A stretch of DNA of 28,066 nucleotides from a virus. The position numbers and the translations under genes are program-made. Location of the stretch: positions 1-28,066 of the IMG/VR virus record IMGVR_UViG_3300020497_000007; one strand, 5' to 3'. Shown one piece after another: positions 5,890 through 18,737 of this stretch. The notes under the pieces were generated by a model. The model did no database searches, had not been told where the DNA came from, and saw only the letters and a list, made by a program, of their open reading frames with translations. Numbering within the stretch: the stretch's first letter is position 1; each line of letters begins with the position of its first letter.

Positions 5890-7290
5890 ATGACAAATAA
5901 AAGTACAGACAGTTTAGGTTATTTAGGTCACACATTTCAATTAAAATTATTAAATCAGATATTATTAGATGATAAGTTTTCATCAACGATAATCGATGTT
6001 TTAGATCCAACTTATTTTGATAATGAATACCTTAGATTAATTTCTAGTAAAATTAAAGATTACCACGAAAAGTATGAAACAATACCAGAGGTTAACACTT
6101 TAGAACAAATGTTAATCGTTGAGATTAAAAGAGAAGTTACCAGACAACATACTTTAGACTTATTAAATGAGGTTAAAGATATATCTCAAAAAGATAGTAT
6201 TTATACCCAAGAAACTGGGTTGATGTTTTGTAAACAACAGGAGTTAAAAAAAGCTACTAAGAAAATTCAAAAAATTCTTGATATGGGTGATTTTGATCGA
6301 TACCAAGAATGTGAAGAAATACTTAAACAAGCTTTAACTGTTGGTAATTTAAAAGATAATGGGGTTGATATTTTTAGTGGTATTGATGATGTATTATCTG
6401 ATGACTTCAGAAATCCAATCCCAACCGGTATTCATGGGTTAGACAATCTAATGGATGGTGGTTTATCTAAAGGTGAGTTAGGTGTTATATTAGCCCCATT
6501 TGGTGTTGGTAAAACAACTATGGTAACTAAGTTAGCTAATACAGCGTATAACTTAGGATTTAATGTAGTCCAAATATTCTTTGAGGATAATCCTAAAGTA
6601 ATACAGAGAAAACATTTTACGTGTTGGACTGGTGTTGAGTTAAATAAATTAAATGAAGAAAGAGAACGAGTTAAGTTTGAGGTTGAGAGTATTAAAGAAA
6701 ATTCAACCGGAAACCTAATTTTAAAGAAATTCCCAAGTGATGGTACGACAATACCACACATCAAACAATACCTTAGAAAATTAACATCTGATGGGATTAG
6801 ACCAGATATCGTATTACTTGATTATATTGATTGTGTACAACCATCTAAACGAGTTGATGATGTAAACGTTGGTGAAGGTAATGTGATGAGAGAATTTGAA
6901 TCTATGATTGATGAGTTAAGTCTTGTTGGTTGGACTGCGATACAAGGTAATAGAGGTTCAATTGGTGCTCAAGTAGTTGAAGCTAATATGATTGGTGGTT
7001 CTATTAAGAAAGGTCAGATTGGTCACTTTATAGTTTCTATAGCTAAAACATTAGATCAAAAAGAAGAGGGTAGAGCTACTATGGCGATTCTTAAATCTAG
7101 ATTTGGTAAAGATGGTGTTATATTTGAAGATATTGTTTTTGATAATGGAACAATTTGTATTGATACTACATCTTCAAGTGATGTTTCTTTCTTAAGTTTT
7201 GAGAAGGGGTTAGATAAAAAGAAATCAAATAGAATACAAGATGCTCTTAAACTAAGAGAAGAGTTTTTAAATAAAAATAAAAGTAATTAA
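5890..7290 (+). CDS. 41: gp41/DnaB-family replicative DNA helicase
   Basis: The protein has 466 residues (T4 gp41 475). The N-terminal ~150 residues are helical, as in the DnaB/gp41 oligomerisation domain. The RecA-like motor domain follows: Walker [10 protein letters not shown] (202-210), catalytic Glu in FFEDNP (Glu232), Walker [10 protein letters not shown] (306-314, Asp311), the QGNRG motif (352-356), and a C-terminal arginine-finger-like KSRFG (402-406). It unwinds DNA ahead of the phage replisome as a hexamer on the lagging strand. No intein is seen here, although gp41 genes of related marine phages often carry them. It is followed by nrdB with a one-base gap (TAATATG). Confidence 0.93.
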
Positions 7291-7291
7291 T

Positions 7292-8242
7292 ATGGAACCA
7301 ATACTAGTAACAAATCCTGATAGGTTTGTATTATTCCCAATTGAACATCAAGATTTGTGGGAATACTACAATATTGAAAAAGCTGCGATGTGGACAGCTG
7401 AAGAATTAGATTTATCAAAAGATATTGATCATTGGGAAAACAAATTAACTGATAATGAAAGATTTTTCATTAAAAATGTATTGGCTTTTTTCGCCGCGTC
7501 TGATGGTATTGTAAATGAAAATTTAGCTATCAATTTTTTAAATGAAGTACAATATACTGAAGCTAAGTTTTTTTATGGGTTTCAAATTATGATGGAGAAT
7601 ATACATAGTCATGTGTATTCTTTATTGATTGACACTTATATAAAGGATATTAAAGAAAGACATAAATGTTTTAAGGCTATTGAGTACATGCCACCGGTTA
7701 AGAAGAAGGCTGATTGGGCTTTGAAATGGATTGAATCAGAATCATTTGTTGAAAGACTATTAGCTTTTGTGGCGGTAGAAGGTATATTTTTTAGTGGTTC
7801 TTTTTGTAGTATATTCTATTTAAAGTCTAGAGGATTAATGCCGGGGTTATGTGATAGTAACGCTTTCATATCAAGAGATGAAGCCTTACATTGTGATTTC
7901 GCGATACATTTATTAAACAATCATATTGTTAATAAACCATCTAAAGAAAAAATAAAGGAGATATTATTATCTGCGTTAGATATTGAAAAAGAATTTATAT
8001 TAGAATCATTACCAGTATCACTTATTGGTATGAACGCTGATTTAATGAAACAATATTTGGAGTTTGTTGTTGATGGTTTACTATCAACACTCAATTGTGA
8101 AAAAGTATTTAACACAAAAAATCCATTTGAATTTATGAATCAAATTGCGTTAAAAACAAAACAAAACTTTTTTGAGGGGAGATCTACAGAATATAAAGCC
8201 GCTGATTTATCAGGACCAATATCATTTGACGAAGAAATTTAA
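7292..8242 (+). CDS. nrdB: class I ribonucleotide reductase small subunit (NrdB)
   Basis: All diiron ligands are present with E. coli-like spacing: Asp71 (SDGIVNEN), Glu102 and His105 (MENIH), Glu163 (VEGIFFSG), Glu197 and His200 (RDEALH). The radical tyrosine is Tyr109, four residues after His105 as in E. coli (Tyr122 after His118). The protein makes and stores the tyrosyl radical used by NrdA. At 316 aa it lacks long N-terminal extensions. Motifs such as EELDLSKDI and [11 protein letters not shown] resemble the eukaryotic R2 branch rather than E. coli NrdB. The C-terminal tail (ISFDEEI) should dock to NrdA. It is translated one base after the helicase stop. Confidence 0.95.
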
Positions 8243-8262: not shown

Positions 8263-9828
8263 ATGCGAGTAATAAAAAGAAATGGGTCTAAGATTGATTT
8301 CAACCCAAATAAAATTTTAACTAGAATAAAAAAACAAGCGGAAGGGTTAAAAATAAATGCTGATGAAGTATTTCTTAAAGTTACTCAAGGTATTGCTGAT
8401 AATATGACAACCGATGAAGTTGATGATTTAATTTCAGTTGTGTCAGAATCATTAGCTATGAATCATCCAGACTATTCTAAGTTGGCCGCTAACATATCAA
8501 TTAGTAAATTACATAAAGAAACTGAAGATTCTTTTATGAAGGCTACTAAAAGATTATATAACGCTGGTTTATTAAATGATTTCTATTATAATAAAGTAAA
8601 AGAAAATATTGATCTGATTGAATCAGTAATTGATTATAAAAGAGATTATAGATTTGATTATTTTGGATGGTGTTCACTTAAAGATATCTACTTATTAAAA
8701 ATTGGTGATGAAATAACAGAAAGACCACAACACCTATACATTAGAGTAGCTTTAATGGTGACTAATAACCCTACTGATTTTAAAGAAAAGTATGAAGATT
8801 TAAGTTTACAAAGGGAATCTCCAGCTACGCCTATAAAAATTAATATTGGTACTAATATAGGACAAATTGCGTCATGTAATTTATCTATAGTTCCGGATGA
8901 CTCAACTGAGGGGTTATTAAGTATGTTAAATAGAATATCAGTATCATCATCTAAAGCTGAAGGTATTGGTTTAGCTATATCTAACATTCGTTCAAAGGAA
9001 AGTAATGTTGGACAATCAAATGGTAAAGCTGGTGGTATTTTAAAATATTTAAAAGTTGTAAATGAAGCTTTAAGATTTTGGAATCAAAGAGGTAAACGAC
9101 CTGGATCTTGCGCTGTTTATATTGAACCTTGGCATAAAGATGTATTTGATATTTTGGATATTAGAAAGAAAACTGGTGATGAAACACTTAGAGCACGAGA
9201 TTTATTTTCAGCGTTATGGATACCGGATAACTTTATGAGAGCTGTTGAATCAAATGGGGATTGGTATTTGTTTTGTCCTAATGACATTAAACAAGCTGGT
9301 TTAAAACCATTTTATGATATCTATGGTGAAGAATATGAGTTAGAATATAATAAGGCTGTTGAGATGGGTTTAGGTACTAAAATCAAAGCTCACGATTTGT
9401 GGTTAAGAATTATTGAATCACAAATTGAAAGTGGTATGCCTTATATGTGTTTTAAAGATCATGCGAATAATAAATCAAATCAAAAGAATTTTGGTGTTAT
9501 ACATTCAAGTAACCTATGTTGTTTACATAGTGACACATTAATTACGATTATGTATGGTAATGGTGAGATTAGAGAAGTAACTATGAAAAATGTTGTTGAA
9601 GAAATTAAAAAGGATAAAAATATAAAAGTTTTAAGTCAAGATAATATTTTTAGACCAATGTTGGCTGCTGCGAAAATGAAATCAAACGCTGAAATTATAG
9701 AAGTTAGTGATGATGAGTTAGGGGTAAAAATAGTTTGTACACCAGATCACCAAATATTAACAAAAAACAGAGGGTATGTTATGGCCGGTGAATTAAATGA
9801 AAATGATGAATTAATTATTAATAAATAA
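8263..9828 (+). CDS. nrdA: NrdA N-terminal fragment fused to the N-half of split intein 1
   Basis: Residues 1-419 are the N-terminal part of a class I ribonucleotide reductase large subunit, and residues 420-521 are an N-intein. The ATP-cone (about 1-90, MRVIKRNGSKIDF) is the allosteric activity site. Cys205 (IASCNLS) corresponds to the redox-active Cys225 of E. coli. The extein ends HSSNLC, where Asn417 and Cys419 match E. coli Asn437 and the thiyl-radical Cys439. From Cys420 the sequence is an intein: CLHSDTLITI (block A) and CTPDHQILTKNRGYV (block B). The ORF ends in TAA and one base later the next ORF starts with the C-intein. Alone the fragment cannot be an active reductase. The 21-base gap from nrdB suggests one operon. 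Confidence 0.93.
   Translation: MRVIKRNGSKIDFNPNKILTRIKKQAEGLKINADEVFLKVTQGIADNMTTDEVDDLISVVSESLAMNHPDYSKLAANISISKLHKETEDSFMKATKRLYNAGLLNDFYYNKVKENIDLIESVIDYKRDYRFDYFGWCSLKDIYLLKIGDEITERPQHLYIRVALMVTNNPTDFKEKYEDLSLQRESPATPIKINIGTNIGQIASCNLSIVPDDSTEGLLSMLNRISVSSSKAEGIGLAISNIRSKESNVGQSNGKAGGILKYLKVVNEALRFWNQRGKRPGSCAVYIEPWHKDVFDILDIRKKTGDETLRARDLFSALWIPDNFMRAVESNGDWYLFCPNDIKQAGLKPFYDIYGEEYELEYNKAVEMGLGTKIKAHDLWLRIIESQIESGMPYMCFKDHANNKSNQKNFGVIHSSNLCCLHSDTLITIMYGNGEIREVTMKNVVEEIKKDKNIKVLSQDNIFRPMLAAAKMKSNAEIIEVSDDELGVKIVCTPDHQILTKNRGYVMAGELNENDELIINK
9520..9825 (+). other. split intein 1, N-terminal half (IntN, 102 aa)
   Basis: The first residue is Cys420 (TGT at 9520), the splicing nucleophile. 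Block A is CLHSDTLI and block B is CTPDHQI with the TxxH catalytic pair. The segment ends INK at the stop codon, at the usual position where split inteins divide. No homing-endonuclease motif is present. By recollection the TKNRGYV segment resembles the metagenomic NrdJ-1 and NrdA-2 split inteins, which also sit near this site. Confidence 0.9.
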
Positions 9829-9829
9829 G

Positions 9830-9928
9830 ATGATAAAAATAAAAAAATTAGAAGAAAAAATTGATGTATATGATATACAAGTAGAAGAAACTAGTAATTT
9901 CTTTGCTAATAATATATTAGTACATAAT
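9830..9928 (+). other. split intein 1, C-terminal half (IntC, 33 aa)
   Basis: The 33 residues hold block F (VYDIQVEETSNFFANN) and block G (ILVHN). The terminal His-Asn pair is followed by extein Ser (+1), the second nucleophile. The ATG start gives an IntC of the standard ~35-residue size of natural split inteins. Confidence 0.92.
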
Positions 9929-10816
9929 TCCGAAATTATGGAGGTAACTGATAAAGAAACCACCGCCATCTGTACGCTAACGTCAATACCGGTTCAAAAA
10001 TTTGTCATAGATAATGAGTATGATTTTAATGAATTAGGTCGTGTTACACGATCAATAACAAAATCACTTAATATTGCGATAGATGTTAATGAATATTCAA
10101 CTAAAGAAGGTAGAAAAGGTGGTTTAGAACAAAGAGCTTTAGGTATTGGTATCCAAGGATTAGCTGACACTTTCGCTATGTTACGATTACCATTTGTATC
10201 TGAAGAAGCTAGATCATTAAATAAAAAAATATTTGAAACAATTTATTATAACGCTTTAAGACAATCTTGTGATTTAGCGAAAGAAACTGGATTAACTTAT
10301 GATTTTTATGAAGGATCTCCAATTTCAAAAGGTATTTTCCAATGGGAAATGTGGGGTGTTGATGAATCTGAATTGAGTGGTATGTTTGATTGGAAACAAT
10401 TAAGAAAAGATATTAAAAAATATGGTGTTAGAAACTCACTTGTCACGACCTGTCCGCCAACCGCAAGTTGTCAAGTTATTGATACTAGAATACATACTGA
10501 AAATGGTGTTAAATCATTTAAAGATTTACTAGTTGAAAATGGTGTTGATTATGTTAAATTAGAAGAATCTAATGAACAACAATGGGTTGAATTTAAAACA
10601 CCTATAAAAGTAAAAACTTATAATGGGTATGAAGATGTAAGTCAAATAAAATATAATGGTCATTCTGAAGTTTATAAAATTGAAATGGAAGATGGTTCTA
10701 TATTTGAAGCAACACCTAACCATAAATTTAGGATTAAAAGAGGTGATACTGAAATTTGGGTTAAAGTTGAGGATTTATTAACTACGGACGATATTATAAA
10801 TATTTTTGAAAAATAA
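9830..10816 (+). CDS. nrdA: middle NrdA fragment carrying C-half of split intein 1 and N-half of split intein 2
   Basis: The 328 residues have three parts. Residues 1-33 are the C-intein of split intein 1, ending ILVHN. Residues 34-213 are NrdA, starting SEIMEV and ending CPPTAS. Glu35 matches E. coli Glu441, and Cys48 (TAICTLTS) matches redox-active Cys462. Residues 214-328 are the N-intein of split intein 2 (CQVIDTRIHTENG...). The protein therefore must be spliced at both ends. The start ATG lies one base after the TAA of the preceding ORF and is shifted +1 relative to it. The extein segment (180 aa) begins and ends exactly where the flanking fragments leave off. Confidence 0.93.
   Translation: MIKIKKLEEKIDVYDIQVEETSNFFANNILVHNSEIMEVTDKETTAICTLTSIPVQKFVIDNEYDFNELGRVTRSITKSLNIAIDVNEYSTKEGRKGGLEQRALGIGIQGLADTFAMLRLPFVSEEARSLNKKIFETIYYNALRQSCDLAKETGLTYDFYEGSPISKGIFQWEMWGVDESELSGMFDWKQLRKDIKKYGVRNSLVTTCPPTASCQVIDTRIHTENGVKSFKDLLVENGVDYVKLEESNEQQWVEFKTPIKVKTYNGYEDVSQIKYNGHSEVYKIEMEDGSIFEATPNHKFRIKRGDTEIWVKVEDLLTTDDIINIFEK
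10469..10813 (+). other. split intein 2, N-terminal half (IntN, 115 aa)
   Basis: It begins with Cys (TGT at 10469) directly after extein PPTAS. Block A is CQVIDTRIHTENG and block B is EATPNHKFRI with the TxxH pair. A typical WVKVEDL...DDI segment near the end precedes the stop. Its sequence is clearly different from intein 1, so cross-reaction between the two should be low. No endonuclease is present. Confidence 0.9.
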
Positions 10817-10847
10817 AATAAGTAATCTAATAAAAACAAAAAATAAA

Positions 10848-10952
10848 ATGAAAATAAAAAGTATAATTAAAAACGGAGTTAAACCAACTTGGGATATTGA
10901 AGTACCAAATGTTCATCATTATATAATGGAAAATGGTTGTGTTAGTCATAAT
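10848..10952 (+). other. split intein 2, C-terminal half (IntC, 35 aa)
   Basis: It contains block F (TWDIEVPNVHHYIMENG) and ends CVSHN, with extein Ser as +1 residue (TCG at 10953). Length and motifs are those of a natural C-intein. Confidence 0.9.
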
Positions 10953-11465
10953 TCGGCCCGTGTCATAGGTTCTAATGAAGCTTTTGAACCGTTTACTTCT
11001 AATTTATATGTTCGTAAGGTAACTGGTGGTGAATTCGCTATGGTTAATAAACATTTGGTTAAAGATTTAGAATTAGAAGGGTTATGGAATAGGGACATTC
11101 TTAATGAATTGATAAAAAATGATGGTAGCGTTCAATCAATCCCAGTTATTAGTCAAGAAATGAAGGAAAGATATAAAACTGTTTGGGAGATATCACAAAA
11201 ATCTCTTATTGAAATGTCGGCCGAAAGAGCTCCATTCATTGATCAATCTCAAAGTCTTAACATATTTTTCGCCACACCAACGGTTGGTAAATTAACTACC
11301 TCACACACATTAGCTTGGAAGTTAGGTTTAAAAACTGGTCAATACTACCTAAGAAGTCAACCGGTAGAAATGAAAGGTAAACATTTAGCTATTGATATGG
11401 GTAAACAAATTAAACCTGAGAAACCTACTGATAGTCAATTTGAATGTTATGGTTGTAGTGCGTAA
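10848..11465 (+). CDS. nrdA: C-half of split intein 2 fused to the NrdA C-terminal fragment
   Basis: I start this gene at the ATG at 10848, 31 bases after the previous stop. A TTG at 10806 is also in frame but would add 14 low-complexity residues and overlap the upstream gene. Residues 1-35 are the C-intein (ending NGCVSHN) and residues 36-205 are the end of NrdA, starting SARVIGSNEAFEP, the usual continuation of the PTAS loop. Tyr166-Tyr167 (QYYLRSQP) correspond to E. coli Tyr730-Tyr731 of the radical-transfer path. The C-terminal CYGC (Cys200, Cys203) is the thioredoxin/glutaredoxin-reducible pair. The fragment completes a 769-residue NrdA. It is followed by a terminator. Confidence 0.92.
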   Translation: MKIKSIIKNGVKPTWDIEVPNVHHYIMENGCVSHNSARVIGSNEAFEPFTSNLYVRKVTGGEFAMVNKHLVKDLELEGLWNRDILNELIKNDGSVQSIPVISQEMKERYKTVWEISQKSLIEMSAERAPFIDQSQSLNIFFATPTVGKLTTSHTLAWKLGLKTGQYYLRSQPVEMKGKHLAIDMGKQIKPEKPTDSQFECYGCSA

Positions 11466-14252: not shown

Positions 14253-17200
14253 ATGTCTAAATCCATTAGGATAAATACAACACCTCTAGGGAATGATAAA
14301 CACTTAAAAGTAAAAATTGATCAAGATTTTGATTTTTTAGAGATTTTAAGTTTAAAAATAACCCAAACTGAAGCGTACACTAAGTATTGTTCGGATTATG
14401 GTGTTGTAGTTGGTAGAGTTGTAGTTAATAACGGATTTGGTATTCCAAACGCTAAAATTTCTATTTTCATCCCATTAGCGGAAGAAGATAAATCAAGACC
14501 AGAGATTAATGGGTTATATCCATTTGAAACTATTTACACTAAAGATTATAAGGGGATTAGATATAATTTATTAAGTAATGAACCAAGACCAGATGATGAA
14601 TGTCACGTTGCGGTAGGTACTTTCCCAGATAAACGACAAGTTTTAGATTGTGGTACAACTTTGGAAGTATTTGAAAAATATTATAAGTTTACTACTACTA
14701 CTAATAGTGCGGGTGATTATATGATATTCGGTGCTCCAGTTGGAGAACATACAATTCATATTGATGTTGATTTAAGTGATATAGGATTTATTAGTCAAAA
14801 ACCTTATGAATTAATTGGTCAAGGTTTTAGTAAAAATTTATTTGCGAGTAATAGTCAATTTAAAACAGGACAAAATTTAGATGTATTAAGTCAAATAAAA
14901 AGTAGAAATACTAGTGCGAGTGTAATTCCATTTTGGGGTGATTTAGAAGAATGTGAAGTTGGTATTACAAGAGTAGATTTTGATTTAAATTATGATATAA
15001 TACCCACAGCGATTTTTATTGGGAATATTTTTGGTGATAATGAAAAAAATAGTGTTAATAAAAGATGTAGACCTAGAAGAAAATTAGGAAATCTTTGTGA
15101 AACTGTTACCGGTGAAGGGACTATTGAAATGATTAGAAAAACACCGGAAGGACTTATAGAAAAGTTTTCGGTGGATGGTGATAATTTAATTAATGAAAAT
15201 GGTGTTTGGTGTTATCAAATACCAATGAACTTAGATAAGTTAGTTACTGATGAGTTTGGTAATTTAGTACCATCAGAAGATCCGGAAAAGGGTGTACCAA
15301 GTAACGCTAAAGTTAGATTTAGAGTTGCTATGAATGAAACTGGTGATACTGGTAGAATACGTTCTAGAGCTAAATTTTTAATACCGAATAGAGGTCTTGA
15401 TTATAATTTTGATGATTCAACACCAGATACTGAATTCGCTGATTTAAGGTGGAAAAAAGTGTATACTGTTAGACAATTTATTGCTCGGTATCAAAAATAT
15501 TGTGAGACAAAAGTTTGTGGAACTAAAAGATCTTTTATTGGTATAAAGGATGTTGATGATTGTGGTGATCATACACCATTCCCATACAATAGAATTGATA
15601 CTGATTTAAATCCGTTATATAGTATTATATGTTTAATCGTAACTATATTAATGACATTAATAGAATTAATTAATGTAAGTTTAATTAGATTACTTAACAT
15701 TGTTATAGGTGCTTTAAATGCTATACTTTGTTTTATTTGTAATATTATCTACGGATTAGGTCAATTTATTGACTCTATTGTTAGTGCCATTAATGGTCTT
15801 ATCCCTGGTAACGGACCATTAAGTTTTAATGTTTGTAATTTTTGTATTGGTACTGGTTGTTGTACTTGTGGAAGTATAATGAATTATATGTCATGTATTT
15901 CTATTAAGTGTGATGAAAAATCATTCGCACCAGGGTGTTATAAACCATCATCATGTTCTTTACCAAGTGGTTGTAGTATACCATCAGATGTAGATAAACT
16001 TGGATGGTGTACGGCTAATAGTGGTCAACCACCAGAAAACTATCCTGGCGATGGTGTTACTAATCAAATTGATTGTGGATCATATAACGCGAGTGATGCT
16101 CATGGGTGTTGTGGTCCCGCGGGAAGTGGTTTTATTCCATTCGCTGGCGCTATGGATTGTATTGAAATACAATTAGCGAGAGCTCTAAATGTTTTTAAAT
16201 TTGATTTTTATAATGATTGGATTAATGGTAGTCTTTACGCTTTTTTATTCAAATATAAAGTTAGAAGAAAAAAGAGTAAAAAAAGAACTGTAGAAAAGTT
16301 TTGTGAATATGATTGTCACGACACGTATGAAAGTGATACAGATTCACCGGAACATAAGTATAATAAGTGTAGAGATAATTTATTCTTAGTTGATACTTGT
16401 GTTGCTAACGATAATAACCCTATTAGTTTTAATAAGGTTGGTATAGATGAAGGTATTATAAAAGAACATAAAGATGAATTATATTATGCTGCGATGACAC
16501 ATGATACCGCCAACTTATTATACGCTACAGATATAACTTGTCTTGGTAGTGCGGTTAATTGTGATATTGATGGTAGACAAAAAATAGTTACTTATTTAGT
16601 TAACACTTCATATAAAATGCCACCAGATACAGCTGAATTAGATAGTAATAATGTTTTGGAAACTACCGCGATAGACCCATTATTATTATCTTTAAATTGT
16701 TTTAGGGTTAAAGTTGAAGATTATAATTGTAAAAATATTAAAAGAATTTGTGAAATTGGTATTGGTTTGGATGAAAATAGAGTTGATGATACACCACCGG
16801 GGGTAGCCGCTAATTGTAATATTGAAATATTTGATAGTCCAATTACTATCGCCACAACGGAAGAATTAGAAGGTGAATTTTTAAGAAATGAATTAGGTTC
16901 TTGTGCTACTGGAATTTATCAGTTTGATTGTACACAAGAACAAACAGATTACAATATATTTAGAGGGTATAATAATCCAAACCCATTGGGGCTACCAACA
17001 GAAAATTCATATTTTTATTATTTTGGGATTAATCCTGGTAAGAGTGCGTTGGATTGTGCTATGGCCTCATATTTTGTCCCTTGTAAGCGAGATAAACAAA
17101 ATCAAATCCCAGCTCAAATTACAACTATAGATAATACTTGTAATAATCAAAACGCTGGTTCTGTTACCGTTAATCTATTAGGTGGTAAAGAACCATTTAC

Positions 17201-18737
17201 GTACACATTTGCTGATACTAATTCTAATTCAATATTAGGAAGTCCTTCATCACCAACAACATCTAATTTTATATCATTCACTAATCTATTTGCTGGTTCA
17301 TATCAATTAAGTGTGACCGATAAATATGGTGATAATTCATTATACAATATCAATATCAATGAACCATTAAGTTTAATTGCTGTACCAACAAGTGTACAAA
17401 ATACAACATCACCTATTTTAAGTAATGGTAGTATAGATATTAATGTATTTGGTGGTAATCCACCTTACACATATCTTTGGTCGCCAGGTGGACAAACAAC
17501 ACAAGATTTGTCTGGAATTGGTGTTGGTGTTTACAATGTAACCATTAAAGATACTGCGACACCTACTTGTAGTCAACAGACTATAACATTAACTGGGTTA
17601 ACTATAGCATCACCTTCTGCGTTGAATTTTAATTATACAACAGTACCATCTAGTTGTTATAATCAAGGTGATGCACAAATAGTGTTATCAAATATTACCG
17701 GTGGAACTTCTCCATATACAATATTTATTAATGGAACATTAACTACAAGTAGTATTGGTAATTTAACTGGTAATACTAGTGGTATACCATATACAATAAC
17801 AGTTTATGACTCAACATCAGCACAAACTGTGACACAAATTGTTACTTTAACATCACCACCTTTATTAACAGCAACAGCAGTACCTGGTACTATTTTATGT
17901 AATGGTTGTACCACTAATATTACTGTTAACCCTAATGGTGGAACATCACCATATACTTACAAATGGAATGATTCAAATAATCAAACTACACAAACAGCCC
18001 TTAATTTATCTGAAGGTACTTATGTGTGTATGATAAAAGACGCTAAAGATTGTGAATATAAAGTTACAACTACAATCACAGCACCACCAAAATTAGATAT
18101 AAATAATGTATTTGTAACTAATGCGGTTTGCTTTAATGGCACAGCTCAAGTTAGTTTTAATCTTGCTGGCGGTACTGGTAATTTAAGTTATGCTATATAC
18201 AATGCCGCATTAAATACAACTTTAACACCGACTTGTAATAATTGTAATACACCAACAAGTACACCATGTACTTCATCTTGTGTATCATCACCTGGTACAT
18301 TAGCGCAACCAATAACTAGTAATGTAACACCTGGGACTTATACATTTAATATACCGCATATTATGATTAGTAAACAATATTATATGGTGGTAACTGATAC
18401 TAATGGTTGTAAAACTTGTACAACATTTATTGTAACATCACCACCACAATTATCTGGTTTATTTACATATAATTTAACTAATAGTATACCGTTTAAACAA
18501 TATTCATTAAATATTACTGGTATAGGTGGGACTTTAACTACATCGTATACTATTAATTTATATAATAGTGTTTTAGGTAATACTAATTGTAATCTTAGTA
18601 CAACTCCAATAACACCTAATAGTTTTACACCAACAACTAAAGATTACATAAATTTAGGTAGTGGTGAATATATAATACAAATAAAAGATGATAATAATTG
18701 TCTATGGTGTAGTTCAACGTTCACTTTACCCTCATAA
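14253..18737 (+). CDS. large structural/adhesin protein with hydrophobic core and SprB-type repeats, 1494 aa
   Basis: Several zones can be seen. Residues about 50-180 contain a carboxypeptidase-regulatory-like beta-sandwich (GRVVVNNGFGIPNAKISIFIPL ... TNSAGDYMIFGAPVGEHTI). Residues 455-517 are an unbroken hydrophobic stretch, long enough for two or three membrane helices. Residues 528-620 are Cys-rich (14 Cys in about 93 residues, including CC and CxxC patterns). Around 660-690 there is a basic KVRRKKSKKR tract. From about 956 to the end there are five or six SprB-like repeats. SprB repeats are known from flavobacterial gliding adhesins. In a phage, this suggests host-surface binding by a tail or baseplate fibre, with the hydrophobic part perhaps used for membrane contact; both are inference. 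It overlaps the next gene by one base. Confidence 0.85.
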   Translation: MSKSIRINTTPLGNDKHLKVKIDQDFDFLEILSLKITQTEAYTKYCSDYGVVVGRVVVNNGFGIPNAKISIFIPLAEEDKSRPEINGLYPFETIYTKDYKGIRYNLLSNEPRPDDECHVAVGTFPDKRQVLDCGTTLEVFEKYYKFTTTTNSAGDYMIFGAPVGEHTIHIDVDLSDIGFISQKPYELIGQGFSKNLFASNSQFKTGQNLDVLSQIKSRNTSASVIPFWGDLEECEVGITRVDFDLNYDIIPTAIFIGNIFGDNEKNSVNKRCRPRRKLGNLCETVTGEGTIEMIRKTPEGLIEKFSVDGDNLINENGVWCYQIPMNLDKLVTDEFGNLVPSEDPEKGVPSNAKVRFRVAMNETGDTGRIRSRAKFLIPNRGLDYNFDDSTPDTEFADLRWKKVYTVRQFIARYQKYCETKVCGTKRSFIGIKDVDDCGDHTPFPYNRIDTDLNPLYSIICLIVTILMTLIELINVSLIRLLNIVIGALNAILCFICNIIYGLGQFIDSIVSAINGLIPGNGPLSFNVCNFCIGTGCCTCGSIMNYMSCISIKCDEKSFAPGCYKPSSCSLPSGCSIPSDVDKLGWCTANSGQPPENYPGDGVTNQIDCGSYNASDAHGCCGPAGSGFIPFAGAMDCIEIQLARALNVFKFDFYNDWINGSLYAFLFKYKVRRKKSKKRTVEKFCEYDCHDTYESDTDSPEHKYNKCRDNLFLVDTCVANDNNPISFNKVGIDEGIIKEHKDELYYAAMTHDTANLLYATDITCLGSAVNCDIDGRQKIVTYLVNTSYKMPPDTAELDSNNVLETTAIDPLLLSLNCFRVKVEDYNCKNIKRICEIGIGLDENRVDDTPPGVAANCNIEIFDSPITIATTEELEGEFLRNELGSCATGIYQFDCTQEQTDYNIFRGYNNPNPLGLPTENSYFYYFGINPGKSALDCAMASYFVPCKRDKQNQIPAQITTIDNTCNNQNAGSVTVNLLGGKEPFTYTFADTNSNSILGSPSSPTTSNFISFTNLFAGSYQLSVTDKYGDNSLYNININEPLSLIAVPTSVQNTTSPILSNGSIDINVFGGNPPYTYLWSPGGQTTQDLSGIGVGVYNVTIKDTATPTCSQQTITLTGLTIASPSALNFNYTTVPSSCYNQGDAQIVLSNITGGTSPYTIFINGTLTTSSIGNLTGNTSGIPYTITVYDSTSAQTVTQIVTLTSPPLLTATAVPGTILCNGCTTNITVNPNGGTSPYTYKWNDSNNQTTQTALNLSEGTYVCMIKDAKDCEYKVTTTITAPPKLDINNVFVTNAVCFNGTAQVSFNLAGGTGNLSYAIYNAALNTTLTPTCNNCNTPTSTPCTSSCVSSPGTLAQPITSNVTPGTYTFNIPHIMISKQYYMVVTDTNGCKTCTTFIVTSPPQLSGLFTYNLTNSIPFKQYSLNITGIGGTLTTSYTINLYNSVLGNTNCNLSTTPITPNSFTPTTKDYINLGSGEYIIQIKDDNNCLWCSSTFTLPS
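17118..18734 (+). repeat. SprB-type repeat array in the 1494-aa protein (5-6 degenerate units)
   Basis: Units of about 75-115 residues share the pattern 'C.nG...v...GG..PYtY.w......l..G.Y.v.v.D...C....'. Examples are VFGGNPPYTYLWSPGGQTT...GVYNVTIKD, NPNGGTSPYTYKWNDSNNQ and NITGGTSPYTIFING. Units begin near residues 956, 1043, 1118, 1208, 1284 and 1403 (approximate). The first four are clear, and the last two are divergent with insertions rich in Cys, Thr and Pro. Confidence 0.8.

What the first reader, a model, noticed from the sequence alone, without database searches (positions are those of the whole stretch)
8263..11465. Ribonucleotide reductase NrdA made from three polypeptides by two different split inteins
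Three consecutive ORFs encode NrdA(1-419)-IntN1, IntC1-NrdA(180 aa)-IntN2 and IntC2-NrdA(170 aa). Each broken end carries full intein splice motifs (Cys1 with block A, TxxH block B, block F, terminal His-Asn then Ser). The exteins add up to 769 residues, a normal class I NrdA length, with every catalytic residue conserved. Single split inteins in NrdA and two in gp41 are known from marine metagenomes. A doubly split reductase with contiguous, endonuclease-free halves is rare as far as I know, and dNTP supply would depend on two ordered trans-splicing reactions that must not cross-react.
Basis: partly seen in the sequence, partly recalled or inferred. Interest (0 to 1): 0.87.

Follow-up and report, generated by a model that had tools for sequence, protein, structure and literature searches.

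The report
Reductase spliced together from three proteins
A virus of bacteria encodes its essential DNA-building-block enzyme as three separate proteins whose ends carry two different 'self-cutting glue' domains; relatives show that parasitic nuclease genes probably broke the gene at both places and were later lost, leaving the virus dependent on stitching the enzyme together.

Summary
NrdA is encoded as 419 + 180 + 170 residues (769 in all) by three ORFs, with split-intein halves IntN1/IntC1 (102/33 aa) and IntN2/IntC2 (115/35 aa) at the breaks. It is not a sequencing artefact: three other metagenome assemblies are 100% identical across the locus, and 67 related contigs have both sites exactly empty. 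This is the known 'fractured gene' arrangement (split intein plus free-standing homing endonuclease) carried to an endonuclease-free end state at two sites. Relatives show the steps: both sites with endonucleases (L106, Klebsiella jumbo phage KP13-7), one shortened and one gutted endonuclease (L111), one endonuclease left (L102), none left (window, L103-105, L113). The doubly split NrdA is therefore not unique; at least six lineages have it, including an isolated phage annotated mostly as 'hypothetical proteins'. Intein 1 is a relative of the split intein NrdJ-1 and intein 2 is DnaE-like (23% mutual identity), which fits orthogonal pairing. Break 1 lies directly after the radical-bearing cysteine, so unspliced pieces should be inactive. 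Splicing itself is inferred, not shown. New variant of a known kind.

The parts
8263..9519 (+). NrdA N-extein, residues 1-419: ATP cone, all-alpha domain, start of the barrel; ends HSSNLC with the thiyl-radical Cys (residue 419) as its last residue
   Evidence: PF03477 1e-13, PF00317 1e-11, PF02867 1.4e-66; alignment to human RRM1, where SNLC aligns with the SNLC of the catalytic Cys; DNA coordinates
9520..9825 (+). IntN1, 102 aa (C1 nucleophile, block B TPDH), then stop codon at 9826-9828
   Evidence: NCBIfam TIGR01445 7.5e-7; joined with IntC1, best PDB match NrdJ-1 8ubs 1.3e-23
9830..9928 (+). IntC1, 33 aa, own ATG one base after the ORF1 stop, ends ILVHN; +1 residue Ser
   Evidence: TIGR01443 1.9e-7; start MIKI conserved in L102, L106 and CPt10
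9929..10468 (+). NrdA middle extein, 180 aa (SEIMEV...PPTAS), from beside the active site to the substrate phosphate-binding loop
   Evidence: PF02867 2e-55; contiguous with both neighbours in 67 empty-site relatives
10469..10813 (+). IntN2, 115 aa (C1, block B TPNH), ends DDIINIFEK, stop codon at 10814-10816
   Evidence: TIGR01445 8e-9; alignment A1 of 7 loci; joined with IntC2, best PDB matches are DnaE inteins at about 2e-6
10817..10847 (+). 31-base spacer where relatives carry a ~355-aa endonuclease gene; possibly a remnant of its 3' end
   Evidence: Relatives L013, L049, L007, L106; similarity to the 3' end of the L049 endonuclease gene is only marginal (p 0.04)
10848..10952 (+). IntC2, 35 aa, starts MKIK, ends CVSHN; +1 residue Ser
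   Evidence: TIGR01443 6.9e-6; start and sequence conserved in six relatives
10953..11462 (+). NrdA C-extein, 170 aa (SARVIG...FECYGCSA), with the radical-transfer Tyr pair and C-terminal CxxC
   Evidence: PF02867 1.6e-39; Y730, Y731, C764, C767 invariant in 37 sequences
7292..8242 (+). Intact nrdB (small subunit) directly upstream, partner of the spliced NrdA
   Evidence: Uninterrupted 316-aa ORF; same gene order nrdB-nrdA in relatives

Best explanation
This is a class I ribonucleotide reductase large subunit of a T4-like phage, encoded as three polypeptides and joined by two independent protein trans-splicing reactions. ORF1 is NrdA(1-419)-IntN1, ORF2 is IntC1-NrdA(420-599)-IntN2, ORF3 is IntC2-NrdA(600-769). 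IntN1 pairs with IntC1 and IntN2 with IntC2; each pair folds into one class 1 intein, cuts itself out and leaves native NrdA. Both breaks arose in the fractured-gene way: split inteins with a free-standing endonuclease gene between the halves (GIY-YIG at site 1, a Vsr-like enzyme at site 2) spread by homing into the most conserved codons of nrdA. Each endonuclease was then lost, but the gene stayed broken because the halves already had their own stop and start codons and kept splicing. Shown here: the anatomy, the empty sites, the intermediate states, purifying selection on exteins and intein halves. Inferred: that splicing occurs, that the pairs are orthogonal, and that the endonucleases are active homing enzymes.
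For: Anatomy and intein signatures. Three further identical assemblies. Sites exactly empty in 67 contigs. State series: L106 has both endonucleases; L102 has GIY-YIG at site 1 only; L103-105, 97% identical to L102, lack it; L013/L015/L016/L049 have site 2 split with an intact endonuclease gene; L111/L112 have site 2 with an internally deleted 90-aa remnant; the window and L113 have none at either site. Site-1 enzymes are GIY-YIG (PF22945 3.6e-13; PF01541 4.1e-7); the site-2 enzyme model's best fold match is Vsr (probability 0.98, E 0.11) and I-Bth0305I is also listed. Intein halves stay under purifying selection: L106 vs L113 IntN2 dN 0.042 / dS 1.40, IntN1 0.098 / 0.61; L102 vs L111 IntN2 0.150 / 1.55. 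NrdA of the window is no further from outgroups than its intact sister L006 (0.545 vs 0.543; 0.518 vs 0.518) and keeps all catalytic residues. No second PF02867 gene in four partial genomes carrying the split form.
Against: No splicing has been observed. Orthogonality rests on sequence divergence (23% identity), not on a pairing test. The site-2 endonuclease assignment is weak (no E below 0.001). The endonuclease remnant in the window spacer is marginal (p 0.04), so loss at that exact site is inferred from relatives. The contig is a fragment, so another RNR elsewhere in this phage cannot be excluded.
Confidence: 0.9

Rival explanations
1. The breaks are frame errors (assembly or sequencing) in two ordinary contiguous mini-inteins, or are bridged by ribosomal frameshifting.
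For: At both breaks the halves are adjacent and in different frames, and one-base changes could join them (reading of the frames).
Against: Identical sequence in three other assemblies. The stop of IntN and the start of IntC sit at homologous positions in relatives that have a whole gene between them. The breaks fall at the canonical split point of both inteins. Start-codon contexts match those of other genes in the window.
Confidence: 0.03
2. NrdA is a decaying pseudogene broken by parasites, and the phage relies on host dNTP supply. This was suggested for Campylobacter phage nrdA in the literature.
For: PMC3653736 describes Campylobacter phage nrdA as apparently degenerating, and CPt10 nrdA is annotated as disrupted.
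Against: dN/dS of exteins and intein halves well below 1, no rate acceleration, all catalytic residues kept, nrdB intact. CPt10 itself reads as NrdA-IntN / two ORFs / IntC-NrdA-mini-intein-NrdA with intact motifs.
Confidence: 0.05
3. The three pieces assemble non-covalently into an active RNR without splicing, as split NrdA does in Aeromonas phage Aeh1.
For: A reductase split into two peptides by a homing endonuclease and still functional is on record (mentioned in PMC10448857).
Against: Here every broken end carries a complete intein half with conserved splice residues under selection, and break 1 lies directly after the catalytic Cys and break 2 in the phosphate-binding loop, so 33- to 115-residue tails would sit in the active site.
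Confidence: 0.03

Closest known systems
Fractured genes with split inteins and free-standing homing endonucleases (Dassa et al. 2009, doi 10.1093/nar/gkp095; cited in PMC7090010 and PMC3653736, itself not held here)
   Same: Conserved phage enzyme gene broken by a split intein, endonuclease gene between the halves in relatives; NrdA and NrdJ are among the reported hosts (7 nrdA and 2 nrdJ interrupted by inteins, per PMC3653736)
   Different: Two different split inteins in one nrdA, and no endonuclease at either break. Whether any of the 2009 NrdA loci were doubly split could not be checked
NrdJ-1 natural split intein (PDB 8ubs)
   Same: Best solved match of intein 1, 1.2e-24, with the same C-extein start SEI
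   Different: Host is NrdA, not class II NrdJ; no splicing data for this intein
Npu DnaE split intein (PDB 4kl5, 2keq)
   Same: Best solved match of intein 2, about 2e-6
   Different: Distant; host gene and insertion site differ
Klebsiella jumbo phage KP13-7 nrdA (OP617745.1, 30877-36407)
   Same: Broken at the same two sites by split inteins, IntN1 and IntC1 of the same kind as here
   Different: Other genes still present at both breaks (GIY-YIG at site 1, an unassigned ORF at site 2), plus a third interruption upstream with an HNH gene; annotated mostly as hypothetical proteins
Campylobacter phage CPt10 / IBB_35 nrdA
   Same: Split intein at site 1 and intein at site 2
   Different: Site 2 is a contiguous mini-intein; two unassigned ORFs at site 1; annotated as disrupted gene
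AceL NrdHF split class 3 intein (PMC7891396)
   Same: Fractured RNR gene with an intervening GIY-YIG gene; trans-splicing characterised experimentally
   Different: Beta subunit, one break, class 3 chemistry

Membership tests
Class I ribonucleotide reductase large subunit (NrdA) | ATP cone, all-alpha and barrel domains in order | tested here: met
   PF03477, PF00317 and PF02867 across the three ORFs; full-length match to human RRM1 3.5e-214
Class I ribonucleotide reductase large subunit (NrdA) | Catalytic Cys/Asn/Glu triad, redox Cys pair, Tyr pair, C-terminal CxxC | tested here: met
   N417, C419, E421, C205, C434, Y730, Y731, C764, C767 invariant in 37 NrdAs
Split intein (class 1) | Cys1, block B TxxH, terminal His-Asn, nucleophilic +1 residue in matching halves on separate polypeptides | tested here: met
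   Both pairs
Split intein (class 1) | Trans-splicing activity | not testable with these tools
   Needs co-expression
Fractured gene (Dassa type) | Split intein in a conserved gene with a free-standing endonuclease gene between the halves | tested here: not met
   No endonuclease gene in the window at either break; present in homologous loci L106, L102, L013, L049, KP13-7, so the window is a derivative and not a full member
Vsr-like (I-Bth0305I type) homing endonuclease at site 2 of relatives | Vsr/PD-(D/E)XK fold | tested here: inconclusive
   Foldseek best hit 1cw0 Vsr prob 0.98 but E 0.11; model pTM 0.45; no Pfam match
GIY-YIG endonuclease at site 1 of relatives | GIY-YIG domain | tested here: met
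   PF22945 3.6e-13 and 2.2e-7, PF01541 4.1e-7

The most novel reading that the evidence does not exclude
Homing endonucleases act as a one-way gene-fracturing ratchet: they break nrdA at two active-site codons, then decay and vanish, while the breaks become fixed because stop and start codons are already in place. The end state is an essential enzyme that must be assembled from three polypeptides by two natural, mutually orthogonal split inteins of different ancestry. The middle polypeptide has the IntC-extein-IntN layout that would circularise it if the wrong halves paired, so orthogonality has been kept by selection.
Probability: 0.6. Interest if true: 0.65.

Novelty: new variant of a known kind. 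Interest (0 to 1): 0.52.

Why it matters
It supplies a natural case of a three-piece essential enzyme joined by two different split inteins, with near-complete intermediate states: empty, broken with endonuclease, broken with a gutted endonuclease, broken without. That makes the question of how split inteins arise and persist directly testable on one gene. It gives two naturally co-occurring intein pairs (NrdJ-1-like and DnaE-like) that should be orthogonal, of use for multi-fragment protein assembly. It also suggests that some phage nrdA genes annotated as disrupted or hypothetical are working, trans-spliced genes.

Tried and rejected
Frame-error and pseudogene readings were tested and rejected. 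IntN1 as a single query found only the same phage, so site-1 relatives were reached through IntN2. Megablast against isolated phages found nothing near the window. Rfam found no group I intron in the KP13-7 or CPt10 regions at gathering thresholds, so the nature of the first KP13-7 interruption is open. The search for an endonuclease remnant in the 31-base spacer was only marginal (p 0.04 against L049, not significant against L013 or L106). Net charges of the halves gave no clear orthogonality signal. The careful phylogeny did not finish; the quick tree with SH-aLRT was used, and long-branch rows L106/L113 make its root uncertain. The automatic count put L107 and L115 as 'insert' at site 1; for L107 this comes from a gappy alignment, since its ORF is contiguous there; L115 was not followed up. 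The 2009 fractured-genes paper is not held.
Full report
OBSERVATION. The window is one whole IMG/VR contig of 28,066 bases. Its gene order (gp32-like, UvsX-like, RNase H-like, DnaB/gp41-like, nrdB, nrdA, gp25-like, gp6-like) reads as a T4-like phage from the ORFs (by inspection of the translations). The three ORFs are as described: 8263-9828, 9830-10816 and 10848-11465. Exteins are 419, 180 and 170 residues, 769 in all; intein halves are 102+33 and 115+35 residues. Pfam places the three parts consecutively on the NrdA models, and NCBIfam's intein_Nterm and intein_Cterm models exceed their cut-offs at all four ends.

NOT AN ARTEFACT. Three other IMG/VR contigs from other samples (L004, L005, L047) are 100% identical over 5.8 to 7.8 kb including both breaks. 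Of the loci that could be scored, 67 have both sites empty exactly at the predicted junctions. The IntC1 start (MIKI), IntC2 start (M[KR]I) and IntN2 end (DDIxNIFE, stop) are conserved across lineages, including those in which a complete gene separates the halves. So each break is an old split point, not a frameshift in a contiguous intein.

WHERE THE BREAKS LIE. Aligned to human RRM1, break 1 follows the Cys of SNLC (residue 419), the thiyl-radical cysteine, and separates it from Glu421; break 2 lies in PTAS|S, the substrate phosphate loop (the functional roles are established knowledge of class I RNR). These residues are invariant in the 37 NrdAs compared. Separate pieces would therefore have a divided active site, which makes splicing, rather than plain association, the likely route to activity (inference).

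ORIGIN: A SERIES OF STATES. L106, whose NrdA is only about 40% identical, has both breaks with a further gene in each: GIY-YIG at site 1 (PF22945 2.2e-7) and a 426-aa protein at site 2 that is homologous to the site-2 gene of L049. L013, L015, L016 and L049 have site 1 empty and site 2 split around a ~355-aa gene; L007 shows the same up to its contig end. L102 is doubly split with GIY-YIG at site 1 only; L103-105, 97% identical to it, lack that gene and have a one-base gap between the ORFs, as the window does. L111 is doubly split, with a shortened GIY-YIG gene at site 1 and an internally deleted 90-aa remnant of the site-2 gene that has lost the conserved EYHGEKFHP core; L112 shows the same remnant. 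L113 is doubly split with short spacers and no endonuclease, and carries a third, contiguous mini-intein next to the Cys205 equivalent. The site-2 gene has no Pfam match; its model most resembles Vsr endonuclease (probability 0.98 but E 0.11), with I-Bth0305I also listed. The direction from endonuclease-bearing to endonuclease-free is supported by the gutted copy in L111/L112; a gain in L102 rather than a loss in L103-105 cannot be excluded for that pair.

FUNCTION KEPT. dN/dS is low in exteins and intein halves: for L106 vs L113 IntN2 dN 0.042 and dS 1.40; for L102 vs L111 IntN2 0.150 and 1.55; for the window vs L006 (empty) N-extein 0.092 and 0.82. The window's NrdA is as close to four outgroups as that of its intact sister L006 (0.545/0.543, 0.524/0.525, 0.518/0.518, 0.540/0.543). 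Four partial genomes with the split gene hold no second PF02867 gene, within the limits of fragments.

TWO DIFFERENT INTEINS. Intein 1 matches NrdJ-1 (8ubs, 1.2e-24) including the SEI C-extein. Intein 2 matches DnaE split inteins (about 2e-6). They are 23% identical to each other. NrdJ-1 is among the mutually orthogonal split inteins used together in PMC7090010. ORF2 is IntC-extein-IntN, a layout that would circularise the middle piece if IntC1 and IntN2 paired (established knowledge of intein cyclisation), so orthogonality is needed here; it was not tested.

MOBILITY. L102 and L111 differ by about 20% in NrdA DNA (N-extein dS 1.55), yet IntN1, the spacer and the first ~40 bases of the endonuclease gene are about 99% identical, and the identical tract starts at the NrdA/IntN1 junction. 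This is the footprint of a recent transfer. The quick tree forces at least three changes for the doubly split state.

COMPARISON. The closest known system is the fractured-gene arrangement of Dassa et al. 2009, known here only through citing papers. The window lacks the endonuclease that defines it and is best called an endonuclease-free derivative with two breaks. Klebsiella phage KP13-7 carries a form with further genes at the same two breaks, unrecognised in its annotation. Campylobacter phage CPt10, annotated as disrupted, reads as a split intein at site 1 and a contiguous one at site 2. None of the searches of the held library turned up a paper describing a doubly split NrdA, but most subscription papers are not held.

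VERDICT. Observation confirmed; interpretation mostly right, but the arrangement is a recurrent end state of a known process and not a singular oddity. New variant of a known kind, interest 0.52.

Noticed in passing
L102 2845-3240 vs L111 3243-3640: Near-identical tract (about 99%) of IntN1 plus spacer plus endonuclease start between phages whose NrdA DNA is about 80% identical; it begins at the extein/intein junction. Looks like recent homing.
   Followed up: yes
L102, L103, L111 site 1 vs window, L106, KP13-7, CPt10: The intein junction is shifted by one codon: NL|intein|C(A/S)EI, with the catalytic Cys as the +1 nucleophile, against NLC|intein|(S/C)EI with it at -1.
   Followed up: partly
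L113 2460-4403: Third, contiguous mini-intein in NrdA next to the Cys205 equivalent (GMISC|FTKDT...VVHN|CNLT), in addition to two split inteins.
   Followed up: partly
L111 5445-5717 and L112 about 943-1284: Gutted site-2 endonuclease gene: 90-aa ORF joining its first ~100 and last ~30 residues.
   Followed up: yes
L108 (OP617745.1 30877-36407): Klebsiella phage KP13-7 nrdA is broken three times (HNH-associated break, then two split inteins with a gene in each) but annotated mostly as hypothetical proteins.
   Followed up: partly
L110 (NC_027996.1 117773-121840): Campylobacter phage CPt10 nrdA, annotated as disrupted, has intact split-intein halves around two unassigned ORFs, so it may be trans-spliced rather than dead.
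   Followed up: partly
L039 46-2774 and L103 424-1752: The gp41-like helicase gene upstream of nrdB is also split by an intein, with a DUF559/MTES_1575-type endonuclease gene in L039 and without one in L103; the window's copy (5890-7290) is uninterrupted.
   Followed up: partly
window 14253-18737: 1494-aa protein with repeated segments in its C-terminal third, possibly a virion adhesin; not analysed.
   Followed up: no
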